Shown piece after piece: positions 14,544 through 40,810 of a DNA stretch of 64,000 nt. Made by a program: the position numbers and the translations under genes. The stretch spans positions 124,001-188,000 of the forward strand of contig JALFTI010000021.1 of the NCBI GenBank assembly GCA_022778585.1, written 5' to 3'. Within the stretch, counting starts at the first letter, position 1; each line of letters opens with the position of its first letter. The notes under the pieces were generated by a model that saw only the letters and a program-made list of their open reading frames with translations, made no database searches and was not told the DNA's origin. Source of the DNA: Pygmaiobacter massiliensis (GTDB taxonomy: Bacteria; Bacillota; Clostridia; Oscillospirales; Ruminococcaceae).

Positions 14544-16694
14544 ATGGTAGCAGAATTTACTTCCCGCAGAGAAACCTTCCCCAATTTCCGCGAATGGAAG
14601 ACCGAGCTGGCCGGCCGCCCGCTGGTGGTGGAAACCGGCAAAATGTGCGGCCTTGCAAACGGCAGCTGCCTGGTGCGGTATGGCGAAACTGCCGTGCTGT
14701 GCAATGTAACCATGAGCGAAAAGCCCCGGGAGGGCATTGACTTTTTCCCACTTTCGGTGGATTTTGAAGAAAAGCTTTACGCGGTGGGCCGCATTCCCGG
14801 CAGCTTTATGCGCCGGGAGGGCCGTCCCGGCGAAAAGGCCATTTTGAACAGCCGCGTGGTGGACCGTCCCATCCGTCCGCTCTTCCCCAAAACCATGCGC
14901 AACGATGTTTCGGTGGTTATGACGGTTATGAGCGTGGACCAGGACTGCAGCCCCGAGGTTGCGGGCATTATTGGTACTTCCATCGCCTTGTCCATTTCGG
15001 ATATTCCCTGGAAGGGCCCCATTGCCGGCGTGTTTATGGGCCTTGTGGACGGCCAGCTGGTGGTGAACCCCACCCAGGCCCAGCGCGAGGTGAGCGATCT
15101 GCAGCTGACCGTTGCCGCCAGCATGGACAAGATTGTTATGATTGAGGCCGGCGCCAACGAGGTGGACGAGGAGACCATGCTTTCGGCCATTGATGTGGCC
15201 CATGTGGAATGCCGCAAACTGATTGAGTTTATTGACGGCATTGTTGCAGTGATTGGCAAGCCGAAAAAGCAGTTTGAAAGCGTGGACCTGGATGCCGAGC
15301 TGCTCGCCGAGGTGAAGCGGGACTATTTGGACGACTTTAAAGCTGCCATGGATACCGACGACAAGAATGTGCGGGACGAGCGGCTTTTGCCCATTCGCGA
15401 AAAGCTGGAAGAGCGTTACCTGGAGCAGTGGGGCGCCGACACCATTGAACAGCTGATGTACAAAATGCAGAAGTTTGTGGTGCGCCGCTGGCTTTTGGAC
15501 GAAGGCAAGCGTGTGGACGGCCGCGGCATTAACGAAATTCGCCCGCTGGCCGCCGAAGTGGGGCTTCTGCCCCGGGCCCATGGCAGCGGTATGTTCACCC
15601 GCGGCCAGACCCAGGTGCTGACGGTGGCAACCCTTTCCAACACCCGGGACGCCCAGATTATTGACGATATCAGCACCGAAGAGACCAAGCGGTACATGCA
15701 CCACTACAACTTCCCGCCCTATTCGGTGGGCGAGGCCCGCGGCCTGCGCAGCCCCGGCCGTCGAGAGATTGGCCACGGTGCCCTGGCCGAGCGTGCGCTT
15801 TTGCCGGTACTGCCCAGCGAGGACGAGTTCCCGTATACCATTCGTCTGGTGTCGGAGGTGCTTTCCTCCAACGGTTCCACCAGCCAGGCTTCCATCTGCG
15901 GTTCCACTCTGGCGCTTATGGATGCTGGTGTTCCCATTAAAGCACCGGTTGCCGGCATCTCCTGCGGGCTTATCACCGAAGGGGACCGCTGGATGACCAT
16001 GCTGGATATTCAGGGGGTAGAGGACTTCCACGGCGATATGGACTTTAAGGTGGGCGGCACCCACAAGGGTATTACCGCCATCCAGATGGACATGAAGGTG
16101 GACGGCCTGACCCGCGAAATTATTGCCGATGCGTTTGAAAAGTGCCGCAAGGCCCGCATTTACATTCTGGATGAAATTATGCTGCCGGTTATTCCCGAAC
16201 CGCGCAAGCAGCTGTCCAAGTATGCCCCCAAAATGATCAGCTTTATGATCGATGTGGACAAGATCCGCGATGTGATCGGCAAGGGCGGCAAGGTGATTCA
16301 GGACATTTGCGCCAAGTGCAACTGCAAGATTGATGTGGAGGAGAACGGCCGGGTTTGCATTACCGCGGTGGACCGGGACGATTTGAACCGCGCCGCCTCC
16401 ATTGTGAAACTGATTGTGGAGGACCCCGAAGTGGGCGCCATCTATAAGGGCCGTGTTACCCGGCTGATGAACTTTGGCGCCTTTGTGGAGATTGCTCCGG
16501 GCAAGGAAGGGCTTGTGCATATCTCCAAGCTGGACCAGACCCGTGTGGAGCGGGTGGAGGATGTGGTCGCTGTGGGCGACGAGATTCTGGTCAAGGTGAT
16601 TCCCTATGACCAGCAGGGCCGGCTGAATTTGTCCCGCAAGGACGCTTTGGCTGACCTGGCTGCCCGCAAGGCCGCCAAGGAACAGGGCGAATAA
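14544..16694 (+). CDS. pnp: Polyribonucleotide nucleotidyltransferase (PNPase)
   Basis: 716 aa; duplicated RNase PH domains, KH (VIGKGGKVIQDI) and S1 (GRVTRLMNFGAFVEIAPGKEGLVHIS) domains. Confidence 0.98.
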   Translation: MVAEFTSRRETFPNFREWKTELAGRPLVVETGKMCGLANGSCLVRYGETAVLCNVTMSEKPREGIDFFPLSVDFEEKLYAVGRIPGSFMRREGRPGEKAILNSRVVDRPIRPLFPKTMRNDVSVVMTVMSVDQDCSPEVAGIIGTSIALSISDIPWKGPIAGVFMGLVDGQLVVNPTQAQREVSDLQLTVAASMDKIVMIEAGANEVDEETMLSAIDVAHVECRKLIEFIDGIVAVIGKPKKQFESVDLDAELLAEVKRDYLDDFKAAMDTDDKNVRDERLLPIREKLEERYLEQWGADTIEQLMYKMQKFVVRRWLLDEGKRVDGRGINEIRPLAAEVGLLPRAHGSGMFTRGQTQVLTVATLSNTRDAQIIDDISTEETKRYMHHYNFPPYSVGEARGLRSPGRREIGHGALAERALLPVLPSEDEFPYTIRLVSEVLSSNGSTSQASICGSTLALMDAGVPIKAPVAGISCGLITEGDRWMTMLDIQGVEDFHGDMDFKVGGTHKGITAIQMDMKVDGLTREIIADAFEKCRKARIYILDEIMLPVIPEPRKQLSKYAPKMISFMIDVDKIRDVIGKGGKVIQDICAKCNCKIDVEENGRVCITAVDRDDLNRAASIVKLIVEDPEVGAIYKGRVTRLMNFGAFVEIAPGKEGLVHISKLDQTRVERVEDVVAVGDEILVKVIPYDQQGRLNLSRKDALADLAARKAAKEQGE

Positions 16695-16715
16695 TTCTTC
16701 GTTTTAGGAAAAAAC

Positions 16716-16759
16716 AAAAAGGGCCGGCCTTTGTGTAAAGCAAAGGCCGGCCCTTTTGC
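16716..16759 (+). terminator. Rho-independent terminator of pnp
   Basis: AAAAAGGGCCGGCCTTTGTGTAAAGCAAAGGCCGGCCCTTTT. Confidence 0.9.
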
Positions 16760-16982
16760 TTTGGAAGAGGGGAAAGTGCAGTGGTGCTGTTAGGGGCCGG
16801 CGAAAAAAACAGCAAAACCCTGCAAAAAAAGCTTGCGTTTTGTAATACCTTGTAGTATATAATAATGTTACGCTTTAGCCGGCATATCGGTTTCAGTGGC
16901 CTTCGAATAAAACGGCGCAGTTTGGCAGATGCGGCATACTGCAGGGCCGCCCAACCGTTTGACAGGTAAAAATGCGGGAGAA

Positions 16983-17925
16983 ATGAAGATGCTTCTTTAC
17001 AGATCGACCGTTGTGGAAGCGACAAATAAGGAGATAGAGCCGCTTTTAAAGCAGATGGTGCGCACAGCGCTGGAAAAACAAATTGGGCCCGACTGGTACG
17101 AACAGCGCGGCAAGCAGGTTATGCAGAGGTACCGGTACTATAAAAAGTTTTGCAAAAAATGGAAGATGGTCTTTCCAGCATAGAAGCTATGGACCTGACA
17201 TCCCTTTTGTTTTTGCTGTTTCCCTATGAGGACAAACCCGGCAATGCCGCCCCAAAAGGGGAAGACCAGCAGCAAGCCGGCAAGCTGCCGGAGGGTTTGA
17301 TCAACGAGGTTGCGCAGTATTACAACTGGGACGCCGAGCAGATAGCAGGGCTGGAAAGGGTGCGCCAGATCCGCAATAATGCCACCCACGACGACTGTGA
17401 TGAGAACAGCAGCTTTTCTCAGCAGGAGATCAACTCCGGCAAGCAGGAAAAGCGTTGGCTTCGCCAGTTGGAGCAGAAGATTCAAAAAATCAAGCCTTCT
17501 TTTTCGCTGCAGCGCTACCAGGAGAAGCTGCTGGAAGAGATTTGCCAGCTGGCGCCGGAGGCAGCTAGCCCCTTTGACGATTTGAAGCTGCAGAACGAAA
17601 GAATTCGGGCCAAGTGCCAAAAAATTTGGAAGATGGAGCTGCTGCATGCCCCGCTGGGCGAGCCGCTTTCGGGCGCGGTACCCTGGGCCGTTGCAACACA
17701 GGAATTACAGGAAATGCCCTGGCCTTCGCAGCAAGTGCAGCAGGGCGCACGGCAGCTTATACCCAGCCGGTTTCCCATACCCAGCCCGCAGCGGAACGGG
17801 GGCCGTCCTTTGGCAGTGTTGCGCCCAGCACCAGCGACCGGGTAAACGATACCATAAGCAACGCAGCCGAGGGCTTGGCCGACGGAATGAGCCGCTTGTT
17901 TGGATGGCTGAATAGGAGGCAGTGA
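16983..17925 (+). pseudogene. SWT1-like HEPN-domain protein, disrupted by at least two -1 frameshifts
   Basis: Collinear pieces in three frames (16983-17183; 17150-17845; last part of the 17614-17925 ORF). Splicing them gives one continuous protein with EKQIGPDWYEQR..., DLTSLLFLLF and an R-x4-H motif (RNNATH). Confidence 0.7.
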
Positions 17926-17930
17926 GGAAT

Positions 17931-20610
17931 ATGATGGACCAAAAAACAAACCCGGCCGAATTTCAGTCGATTCAAAAGCTGCGGGAAAGCGCCCCAAGTG
18001 CAGGCTATGCGGCCTGGTACCATTTGGCACAGGCTTATTACACCGGCGAAAATGCCCCCAAGGACCTGGAGGAAGCTGCCTTTTGGCACTGGCGGCAGCC
18101 AGCGAGCCGGGAGAATGGCAGCAGCAGGGCCGTCAACTGATTGGCCAGATTCGCCGCCAGCTGTTTTCGGGCGATGTTATGCAAAAAGCTGCCCAGTACG
18201 ATTCCGAAGGCCGGTTTGAGGAGTCGTTTGAAATTTATTTGGCCCAGACCCAGCAGGAAAATGTGCAGGCCATGAATGCGCTTTCTGTTTGCTACGAACT
18301 GGGCGTGGGCGTGGAAGAAAACGCCCAGAAAGCGTTTTTTGGGCTGAAGCAGGCGGCTGAAAACGGGCTTTCGTATGCCTATTACCCGCTGGCATACCGT
18401 TATTATATCAGCGATGGCACAAAGCCCAACCGGGAAAAAGCCATTTATTGGGCACAGAAGGCAGCCTGCCTGGAAAATGCCAGCACACAGGATGCTTGCA
18501 CCCTGTTAGAGAAACTGCAGCAGACCACAGAGGATAATTTGTGGATGACCTATGCTGCTAAATGCGAAGAGCAGCCTGAAAAACAGACAGAGGCCTTTCA
18601 AATTTACCAAAAGCTGGCGCAGGCTAAAAACCCCGAGGCGATGTACTGGCTGTCTTACTGGTATCAGGAAGGCTGCGGCACCGAACAAAATCCGATTGAA
18701 GCGATGCGGTGGCTGAACTGTGCGGCCGAAAATGGGGAACAGCTGGCCTATTACCCACTGGCCTGGCTGTATGCGAATGCCGACGCAGCCCAACAGGACC
18801 TGCAAAAAGCTTTGTACTGGGCTGAAAAAGCGGCCTGCGTGGAAGGAGAAAACAAGAAGATGCCTGTGCGCTTTTAAAGCAGCTGCGTCAGCAGACAGCA
18901 CAAAAAGAGCAGCAGCCAACGCCAACACAGGAGGTGCAGCCGCCGGTACAGAAAGACCAGCAGCCTGCACAGCAAGCGCAGCAGCCGGCAGCTGGCCATT
19001 GTGCGGCTGCTTTGCAGCCAAAAAAGCAGCCGGTGGCGAAGGAACAGCCCGCGCAACAAACGCCGCAGCAGCTGGCCCAGCAGTTTGCTCAGCTGCAGCA
19101 GCAGGCCCAGCAGGGGGATGCACAGGCCATGTATGAGCTTTCCGTCTGCTATGTCAAAGGGTCGGGAACTGAGCTGGACAGACAAAAGGCCGCACAATGG
19201 TGTAAAAAAGCAGCGGAATAGGGCTTTGAAAAGGCCTTTTTGTCCATGGCGTATCGGTACTTTAACGGTGACGGTATAGGACACAATTTTGTACAGTCGG
19301 AATACTGGGCGCAAAAGGCCGCACAGGTTGAAAACGAAAACCAGGCTGCCGCCAAACGGCTTGTAGAAATTTTGCAACAGCGCAAAGCGCAGGCAAAGCC
19401 GCAGAACAAGGCGCCGGTAAGCACAGCCCAAAACCGAACAAATGCCAATACGGAAAACCGCGGGTTGCAGCTTTACCGCGCAGGCCGCTGTGCCCAGGCC
19501 CTGCCGGTTTTGCTGGCCGAGGCCCAGCAGGGAAATGTGCAGTCGCTTTATTATGCGGCGCTGTGCCAGTTGGAAGCAACGGAACCTCAATATAATCCGC
19601 ACCAGGCTTTTGCTTTGCTGCAGCAGGCGGCCGAGCAGGGGGTTATACAGGCATATTGCCATTTGGCGCGGTTTTACTACCAGGGCGTGGTGGTGGAACA
19701 GGACCTGGACCAGGCCTATAACCTGGCCAGCCTGGCCGTGCGCCAGCCGAACCTGCTGCGTCAGCAAGCCTGGATTTTGATGCAGAAGATTGTTTGGCAG
19801 CAGAAGGGGCAGCAGATTGATCTTTCCCAGGCGGCGCAAAAAGATTATTCCGACGGCTTTATTTTGTACCCAAAAAAGCAGTATTTTCAGGCATTGCCGC
19901 TTTTGGAGAGTGCTGCCAGAGCGGGACATGCCGGGGCGCTTTACCAAATTGGCATGGCCTACCTGGACGGAAACGGGGTTGCACAAAATTATGCCAATGC
20001 CAGCCGCTTTTTGCAGGAAGCTGCTCTGCGCGGCAGCTGGGATGCTTTGCAGGCCTTGTTCACACGGATGATAGGTTCCGTTACAATGCTGCCGTTTAAG
20101 CTGTGTGCCCAGCTTAGCAAAATGCCCCAGTGCGAAAATGTTTACCAGGCAGGTTTGGAAAATTGGCTTACACAGCTGCGCAGTAAACAGCCCAGCAGGG
20201 TAAGACCATTTTGCACCGACGCCAGCAACGCCATGCTGCAGGCAATGGAAATTCGGAAAAAACCCAAGCGGATGTCTGTGCCAAGCGGAGAGAAGTCTCA
20301 TTTAATTGATACCCAGGGCAACTGGGAGGCAGGCGAATGCTTTTTGCGGGCCGGCGCATTCGGCGACGCAGACGGCTTTTGCGGCTACGCTGAAATTTTG
20401 AACCAAAGTTCGGACCCAAAATCCAGGGAACAGGCAGTTTATTACTATAAGCTGGCGGCCTATTTGGGCCATTCCTATGCCATGTACCGGCTGGGGCAGC
20501 ACTATGAAGCAAAAGACCAGCAAGCTGCCAGAGCCTGTTACCGCGCAGCGGCAAAATGGGGATACCAGCCGGCCCAAATGTGGTGCAGGCAGTATGGGCA
20601 GGATTTTTAA
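17931..20610 (+). pseudogene. Long Sel1-like (TPR-type) repeat protein, disrupted by two -1 frameshifts and one in-frame TAG
   Basis: Collinear pieces 17931-18140, 18083-18877, and one frame from about 18856 to 20610 interrupted only by TAG at 19219-19221; repeated A-x-Y-x-L-x(3)-Y-x(2)-G-x-G Sel1 pattern throughout. Confidence 0.8.
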
Positions 20611-20688
20611 AGCATTTAAAGCGGCATGAAATATGGCGTTTGCCTCTGTGGTCCAATGTGGCCCAATTTGGAAAGGAGAGTGTGTGCT

Positions 20689-21066
20689 GTGGTTCCCATG
20701 CACCCGCACCATGCGCTGTGCGCGCTGTTTTTTGAGGGAAAAGGGTACAGCGATATCTTTACCGAGCACCTGGCCCTGATGCTGGATGGCCTGGCCGCAA
20801 AAGACCGCCCGGTTACGCTGACCCTGGGGGCGGATTTGATCTGCGGCCCCTGCCCCCATAACCAGCCTTCCGGCTGCGAATCGCAGGAGAAGGTGGCCCG
20901 GTATGACCGGCAGGTGCTTTGCCTGTGCGGGCTGCAGGAAGGGGATACCCTGCCCTGGAGCCAGCTAGAGCAGCTTTGCCTGGAAAAAATTGTAAGGCCC
21001 GGGCGGCTTGTGCAGGTATGCCCGGACTGTGCCTGGGCGGATATTTGCCAAAAAAAGCAGCTTTGA
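20689..21066 (+). CDS. DUF1284-like protein (cysteine-rich)
   Basis: HPHHALCALFFEGKGYS...CGPCPHN...VCPDCAWADIC; AAGGAG upstream of GTG 20689; start could be ATG 20698. Confidence 0.7.
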   Translation: MVPMHPHHALCALFFEGKGYSDIFTEHLALMLDGLAAKDRPVTLTLGADLICGPCPHNQPSGCESQEKVARYDRQVLCLCGLQEGDTLPWSQLEQLCLEKIVRPGRLVQVCPDCAWADICQKKQL

Positions 21067-39751: not shown

Positions 39752-40810
39752 TTAACGGTTCAGGCGTTTTGCCAAAAGTTCCGGGTTTGCGGCATAGGTC
39801 AGCGCGGTTTTGTCGGAAATAATGCCCGCTTGCACCAGCTGCAGAATACTGGTATCCATGGTAATCATACCCTCCTGGCTGCCGGAAGCAATCATGGTGT
39901 CCAGCTGGTGGACCTTGTTTTCCCGAATGAGGTTGCGGATGGCGGGGGTTGCCACCATAATTTCAAAGGCGGGAACCAGACCTCCGTCCAGGCTGGGCAG
40001 AAGCTGCTGGCTGACCACCGCCTGCAGCACCATGGCAAGCTGCACAGCAATTTGGTGCTGCTGGGCCGGCGGGAACGAGTCCAGAATGCGGTCGATGGTA
40101 TTGGCGGCGCCGATGGTATGCAGGCTGGAAAAGATTAAATGCCCGGTTTCGGCGGCGGTCATGGCGGTGGTAATGGTTTCGTGGTCCCGCATTTCGCCCA
40201 GCAAAATAGTGTCGGGGCTTTGGCGCAGTGCCGCCCGCAATGCCGACACATAGCTTGCGGTGTCGGTATTGATCTCCCGCTGGCTTACAATACACTGTTT
40301 ATGCCGGTGCAAAAATTCCAGCGGGTCTTCCAGCGTGATAATATGCCCCGAACGGGTGGAGTTGATGCGGTCGATCAGGCAGGCAAGGGTAGTGGATTTG
40401 CCGCTGCCGGCGCTGCCGGTAACCAGAATAAGCCCTTTGGTGCGGTCGGCCAGCGAAAGCACACTGGCAGGAATGCGCAGTGCGGCGGGGTCGGGCAGTT
40501 CAAAGGTGATAATGCGGACCACCGCGGCCAGAGAATTGCGCTGGCGGTAGGCCGACACCCTGAACCGGGACACGCCGGGCAAAGCAAACGAAAAATCATC
40601 GTCGCCATTGGACAAAAAAGGCTCAATTGGCCGTTTGGCCAGCTGATAGATCTGTTCCAAAAGCGACTGGGTATCGGCCGGGCGCAGCGGTTCGGGGCCA
40701 ATGTTACACAATTTGCCGTCCAGCTTGTATACCGCAGGGCGGCCGGCCACCAGATACAGGTCCGAAGCGCCCAGCTTCACCACCTGCTCCAGTTGGGCAA
40801 TCAGGTCCAT
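39752..40810 (-). CDS. pilT: PilT-type twitching motility/retraction ATPase
   Basis: GASDLYLVAGRPAVYKLDG; Walker A GSAGSGKSTT; LEDPLEFLH; GEMRDHETITTAMTAAETGHLIFSSLHT. Confidence 0.93.
   Translation of the reverse strand: MDLIAQLEQVVKLGASDLYLVAGRPAVYKLDGKLCNIGPEPLRPADTQSLLEQIYQLAKRPIEPFLSNGDDDFSFALPGVSRFRVSAYRQRNSLAAVVRIITFELPDPAALRIPASVLSLADRTKGLILVTGSAGSGKSTTLACLIDRINSTRSGHIITLEDPLEFLHRHKQCIVSQREINTDTASYVSALRAALRQSPDTILLGEMRDHETITTAMTAAETGHLIFSSLHTIGAANTIDRILDSFPPAQQHQIAVQLAMVLQAVVSQQLLPSLDGGLVPAFEIMVATPAIRNLIRENKVHQLDTMIASGSQEGMITMDTSILQLVQAGIISDKTALTYAANPELLAKRLNR

What the first reader, a model, noticed from the sequence alone, without database searches (positions are those of the whole stretch)
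16983..20610. Decayed two-gene HEPN + giant Sel1-repeat locus
Seen: collinear fragments in alternating frames reconstruct two adjacent genes, about 314 aa and about 893 aa, with a short RBS-sized junction at 17923-17931. The first carries SWT1-like HEPN features (EKQIGPDWYEQR..., DLTSLLFLLF, RNNATH = R-x4-H). The second is built of Sel1-type repeats. Established: R-x4-6-H HEPN proteins are often RNases or toxins, and Sel1 proteins are scaffolding or adaptor repeats. Inference: this may be the remnant of a conflict or stress system in which a HEPN effector pairs with a Sel1 scaffold. I cannot assign a function from this sequence.
Basis: partly seen in the sequence, partly recalled or inferred. 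Interest (0 to 1): 0.68.

Follow-up and report, generated by a model that had tools for sequence, protein, structure and literature searches.

The report
Broken HEPN plus Sel1-repeat gene pair
A bacterium carries the disabled remains of two neighbouring genes, one for a likely RNA-cutting (HEPN) protein and one for a large Sel1-repeat scaffold; relatives elsewhere, including single proteins in which the two are fused, show that the pairing is real, but a HEPN-Sel1 partnership as such was already known.

Summary
Codon usage and homology put two collinear genes at 16983-17925 and 17931-20610, broken by four frame changes (all in the same direction) and one in-frame TAG. The second gene is Sel1 repeats beyond doubt. 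The first hits no Pfam HEPN model alone, but a relative exists in another genus of the same family (G457; 34% identity, E 1.4e-28), also directly upstream of an intact 823-codon Sel1 frame. That relative touches HEPN_Swt1 (E 0.0025, below cut-off). The two-member profile aligns with bacterial Swt1-HEPN far above shuffled controls (45.8 against at most 19.6), with R-x4-H in register. Two genomes of a distant genus encode one intact ~637-aa protein with HEPN_Swt1 at the N-terminus and Sel1 behind it, a fused form of the same pairing. The pair is patchy: absent from six same-genus genomes and found only in G457 among the genomes sampled. HEPN-Sel1 association was reported in 2013 for other HEPN families (AbiU2, DUF4145), so this is a variant of a known kind. 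Most likely it was a HEPN RNase held or switched by a Sel1 scaffold. A conflict role is plausible but untested: no clear defence neighbours, phage or plasmid copies were found.

The parts
16712..16762 (.). Strong stem-loop between PNPase (14544-16694) and the pair, probably a terminator that isolates the pair from PNPase
   Evidence: inverted repeat 22 nt, 91%; 17-pair terminator-like stem on the minus strand
16983..17155 (+). HEPN gene, N-terminal fragment (frame 0), with GPDWYEQR
   Evidence: codon usage; matches the N-terminus of the G457 relative, E 4.5e-10
17150..17842 (+). HEPN gene, main fragment (frame 2), with DLTSLLFLLF and RNNATH (R-x4-H); homology to G457 runs at least to PWPS, about 17732; the open frame runs on to 17842
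   Evidence: codon usage; E 3.6e-20 against the G457 relative; G457 flank sequence
17740..17925 (+). HEPN gene, C-terminal tail (frame 1) with a conserved amphipathic helix (AAEGLADGMSRLFGWLNR)
   Evidence: matches the tail of the G457 relative, E 0.00099; helical moment above shuffles in both
17913..17933 (+). Short junction: ribosome-binding site TAGGAGG, stop of gene 1 (17923-17925), start of gene 2 (17931)
   Evidence: sequence
17931..18110 (+). Sel1 gene, N-terminal fragment (frame 0)
   Evidence: PF08238 E 0.006, below cut-off; codon usage
18083..18877 (+). Sel1 gene, second fragment (frame 2), four repeats
   Evidence: PF08238 E 4.8e-25; codon usage
18850..19221 (+). Sel1 gene, third fragment (frame 1), glutamine-rich linker and a repeat, ended by an in-frame TAG at 19219-19221
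   Evidence: PF08238 E 8.9e-8; sequence
19222..20610 (+). Sel1 gene, last fragment (frame 1), five repeats and a C-terminus shared with G457
   Evidence: PF08238 E 2e-18; the C-terminal 65 aa find the G457 Sel1 protein best, 36.7 bits

Best explanation
Pseudogene remnant of a two-gene operon: a Swt1-like HEPN protein (about 310 aa, HEPN at the N-terminus, amphipathic tail at the C-terminus) followed by a giant Sel1-repeat protein (about 890 aa). In the working form the HEPN protein probably cut RNA as a dimer through R-x4-H, and the Sel1 solenoid bound it and held, placed or switched it. Shown: the two genes, their breakage, the HEPN and Sel1 homologies, recurrence of the pair in another genus, and fusion of the same two modules in a third. 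Inferred: RNase activity, direct binding, membrane placement by the tail, and a stress or conflict role.
For: Frames and lesions. Sel1. Relative of the HEPN gene in G457, E 1.4e-28, directly upstream of an intact Sel1 gene on the same strand whose C-terminus is the best match of the window's. HEPN: PF18731 E 0.0025, PF18730 E 0.019 and a Cas13e-model hit E 0.0011 over the R-x4-H stretch for the relative; profile-profile score 45.8, probability 92.7, against at most 19.6 in 150 column shuffles; invariant W-x-E-Q, D-x-T and R-x2-R-N-N-x2-H. Fused HEPN_Swt1-Sel1 protein, intact, HEPN_Swt1 28.6 bits over the 27.5 cut-off and Sel1 272 bits. Patchy presence.
Against: Only one second genome has the two-gene form, and its HEPN gene has a frame change near the 3' end. 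The window's own protein hits no HEPN model above threshold. The single-sequence fold of the main fragment is of low confidence (pLDDT 46.8). No clear defence context or mobile copies were found. Lesions could in principle be assembly errors.
Confidence: 0.55

Rival explanations
1. The HEPN domain was not a nuclease but an RNA- or protein-binding signalling module, for example at the membrane, with Sel1 as scaffold; the pair served regulation or envelope stress rather than conflict.
For: Amphipathic tails in both relatives; in G457 a membrane protein lies directly upstream in the same orientation; no clear defence neighbours. Published Sel1-linked HEPN proteins of Firmicutes include zinc-ribbon, TM and SH3 fusions (PMC3710099).
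Against: R-x4-H with the flanking R and N is among the few positions invariant between relatives only 21-35% identical, as expected for a retained active site.
Confidence: 0.27
2. The locus is intact and the frame changes are assembly or consensus errors.
For: All four frame changes go the same way, and G457 also has one; no reads were available.
Against: The in-frame TAG is a fifth, different lesion. PNPase directly upstream is open over 716 codons at 88% identity to a same-genus copy, and DUF1284 and transaldolase downstream match their families over nearly the whole profile in one frame. Genome 97.9% complete, 28 contigs.
Confidence: 0.12
3. The two genes are unrelated neighbours; Sel1 genes are common in this family and the adjacency is chance.
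For: Sel1 proteins without a recognised HEPN neighbour are frequent in the family.
Against: Same order, strand and short junction in another genus whose HEPN protein is only 34% identical, and fusion of the two modules in a third genus.
Confidence: 0.04
4. Programmed -1 frameshifting produces alternative proteins.
For: All frame changes are of the -1 kind.
Against: Four changes plus a stop in two genes; in G457 the single change lies before the PWPS motif whereas in the window it lies after it, so the position is not conserved; the G457 Sel1 gene has none.
Confidence: 0.02

Closest known systems
Swt1-like HEPN (Pfam PF18731 HEPN_Swt1; Abi2/Swt1 group of Anantharaman et al. 2013, PMC3710099)
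   Same: G-x2-W region, D-x-T helix and R-x4-H aligned by profile comparison
   Different: Below the Pfam cut-off in the window and in G457; the paper's Swt1-like fusions list AAA+, PIN, ParB, TM, TPR and others, not Sel1
AbiU2 HEPN with a Sel1-repeat gene in the same operon (PMC3710099, Table 1)
   Same: HEPN gene paired with a Sel1 gene
   Different: No AbiU2 model among the Pfam hits
DUF4145-type HEPN fused to Sel1, zinc ribbon, TM, SH3 in Firmicutes (PMC3710099, Table 1)
   Same: HEPN joined to Sel1 in Firmicutes
   Different: No DUF4145 hit; here separate genes, no zinc ribbon recognised
HEPN_Swt1-Sel1 fusion proteins of G578 and G540 (loci L124, L125; found here)
   Same: Same two modules, HEPN first
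   Different: One chain of about 637 aa, intact, instead of two genes

Membership tests
HEPN superfamily, Swt1-like (PF18731) | R-x4-6-H motif in a helix | tested here: met
   RNNATH in the window, RNNIVH in G457, RNNYGH in the fusions, all aligned
HEPN superfamily, Swt1-like (PF18731) | Score above the Pfam gathering cut-off | tested here: not met
   Window protein no hit; G457 relative 18.5 against 27.5 bits. Of the two fused proteins one passes (28.6) and one just misses (26.2). So the window protein is called Swt1-like, not a formal PF18731 member
HEPN superfamily, Swt1-like (PF18731) | Profile-profile similarity beyond chance | tested here: met
   hhalign score 45.8, E 4.2e-7 for one comparison; 150 shuffles at most 19.6, reversed 14.6
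HEPN superfamily, Swt1-like (PF18731) | HEPN helical-bundle fold | tested here: inconclusive
   Only the main fragment could be folded, alone: helical but pLDDT 46.8
HEPN superfamily, Swt1-like (PF18731) | RNase activity | not testable with these tools
   needs biochemistry
Sel1-repeat proteins (PF08238) | Several repeats above the cut-off | tested here: met
   87.5, 32.8 and 66.6 bits in three fragments, cut-off 30.7
AbiU2 HEPN-Sel1 operon | AbiU2-type HEPN domain | tested here: not met
   no AbiU2 model among Pfam hits for the window protein or its relative
HEPN-MNT toxin-antitoxin | Nucleotidyltransferase partner next to the HEPN gene | tested here: not met
   partner is a Sel1 protein
Known anti-phage defence systems (PADLOC) | Match to a defence model | tested here: not met
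   no convincing hit for either gene

The most novel reading that the evidence does not exclude
A so far undescribed, patchily spread family of Swt1-like HEPN RNases controlled by dedicated Sel1 solenoids, existing as two-gene operons (with a membrane-binding tail on the HEPN protein) and as single fused proteins, acting as a conflict or stress effector in Firmicutes.
Probability: 0.3. Interest if true: 0.55.

Novelty: new variant of a known kind. Interest (0 to 1): 0.36.

Why it matters
It adds the Swt1-like branch to the HEPN families known to go with Sel1 repeats, and it supplies concrete relatives for testing: an operon in G457 and intact single-chain fusions in G578 and G540. If Sel1 solenoids gate HEPN RNases, that would be a simple scaffold-based control of a dangerous enzyme. 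The copy in the window itself is dead, which limits its own interest.

Tried and rejected
Pfam, NCBIfam, PADLOC and PHROGs scans of the fragments and relatives gave Sel1 but no HEPN above threshold for the window protein. Collection scans for the HEPN fragment, the last Sel1 fragment, the G457 protein and the fusion found nothing, nor did plasmids or phages. Weak matches in the order-wide search did not hold up: the best ones aligned short stretches of unrelated proteins. PDB sequence search: nothing meaningful. Same-genus loci next to PNPase were checked for the pair: none. The membrane gene of G457 was not found in the window. Programmed frameshifting was considered and rejected because the shift sites differ between the two relatives.

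Full report
What is in the sequence. Between PNPase (14544-16694) and a DUF1284 gene (20626-21066) lie two collinear, same-strand, broken genes. A codon-usage log-odds score trained on long open frames of the window runs through frames 0, 2 and 1 in gene 1 and again 0, 2 and 1 in gene 2. Every frame change is the equivalent of one lost base; an in-frame TAG at 19219-19221 adds a nonsense lesion. A strong stem-loop at 16712-16762 separates the pair from PNPase. The junction has TAGGAGG at 17913-17919, stop at 17923-17925 and ATG at 17931.

Gene 2 is Sel1. Three fragments pass the PF08238 cut-off. No other close copy was found in the genome. Relatives in the family are mostly Sel1 proteins of about 500-1050 aa without a HEPN neighbour.

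Gene 1 and HEPN. Alone, the window protein hits no HEPN model in Pfam. A home-made Swt1 profile from 25 family members scores it 11.5 bits, just above the best of 200 shuffles (8.3). Searches of same-genus genomes, 100 relatives and 394 genomes of the order found no convincing relative. A search of 398 genomes of the family found one: G457, 34% identity, E 1.4e-28. That protein scores E 0.0025 on HEPN_Swt1, E 0.019 on HEPN_Cthe2314 and E 0.0011 on the Cas13e model over the stretch that holds its R-x4-H; all are weak and below cut-offs. The profile of the two sequences against the Swt1 alignment gives hhalign probability 92.7 and score 45.8; 150 column shuffles reach 19.6 at most and the reversed profile 14.6. 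The aligned region spans G-x2-W to R-N-x3-H. This is good evidence for a Swt1-like HEPN domain, though the formal Pfam cut-off was tested and not met.

The pair is real. In G457 the HEPN gene is followed on the same strand by an intact 823-codon Sel1 frame. Its C-terminus is the best match of the window's Sel1 C-terminus among all loci compared. The HEPN tails end in similar amphipathic helices, LFGWLNRRQ and LFKWLEKRK (helical moments reached by 0.35% and 0.05% of shuffles). The G457 HEPN gene is itself shifted once near its 3' end, at a different place from the window's, so this copy is not a clean intact one; whether that is decay or an assembly error cannot be told.

A fusion supports the link. 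Among HEPN_Swt1 members of the phylum, two genomes of one genus, G578 and G540, encode an intact protein of about 637 aa with HEPN_Swt1 at residues 8-120 (28.6 and 26.2 bits; cut-off 27.5) and 8-9 Sel1 repeats behind it. Alignment of the four HEPN domains leaves 16 invariant positions, among them W-x-E-Q, D-x-T and R-x2-R-N-N-x2-H. Fusion in one genus and adjacency in others is the usual evidence that two modules work together (inference).

Distribution. PNPase is present in all seven genomes of the genus, but none of the other six has the HEPN gene, and what follows PNPase differs in those where it could be read. Three other genomes of G457's genus lack it too, as did a sample of about 350 genomes of the class. 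So the pair is a rare accessory locus. No copies were seen in plasmids, phages or viral contigs, and base composition does not set it apart.

How it most likely worked. The HEPN domain keeps the R-x4-H of active HEPN RNases; Sel1 solenoids are known as protein-binding scaffolds (established knowledge). I think it most likely that the HEPN protein cut RNA and that the Sel1 protein held it in check or placed it, perhaps at the membrane through the tail; in G457 a predicted membrane protein (judged from sequence) lies directly upstream. RNase activity, binding and localisation are inferred. The conflict role is a possibility by family resemblance (PMC3710099) and has no support from the neighbours scanned.

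Novelty. Anantharaman et al. 2013 (PMC3710099, Table 1, read) already list AbiU2 HEPN in operons with Sel1 genes, DUF4145-type HEPN fused to Sel1, and LA2681 with TPR. The present case extends this to the Swt1-like branch, with both split and fused forms. Literature searches found no other account, within an open-access library only. The window copy is a pseudogene, which limits its own interest.

Noticed in passing
L033:1079-7376 (same genus, G003) and L038:6767-14932 (G037): A recurring three-gene set: a Sel1 protein, a 1105/1215-aa protein almost without Pfam domains (a weak zinc ribbon near the end in one), and a vWA-domain protein; looks like an uncharacterised vWA system.
   Followed up: partly
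L121:1778-2284 (G730): A clear DUF6548 protein (PF20185, E 3.2e-37) carries RIRHIRNIITH, an R-x4-H stretch, and a hydrophobic C-terminus; DUF6548 also weakly matches the window and G457 HEPN proteins, so DUF6548 may be an unrecognised HEPN family.
   Followed up: partly
L116:10060-10686 (G457): A 209-aa protein with hydrophobic (membrane-like) segments ends right at the start of the HEPN gene and may be a third member of that operon; absent from the window.
   Followed up: partly
window 20626-21066: DUF1284 gene directly downstream of the pair; found in only one of six other genomes of the genus, in a different neighbourhood, so the accessory stretch may include it.
   Followed up: partly
L126:6369-7646 (G487): A 426-aa protein with a sub-threshold HEPN_Swt1 match lies beside two recombinase-like genes and a DUF262-like gene, a likely mobile conflict locus (gene names judged by eye from sequence).
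   Followed up: no
window 39752-40810 (-): ORF with weak matches to the defence models mad8 (E 1.5e-6) and HerA (E 6e-4), probably a generic ATPase.
   Followed up: no
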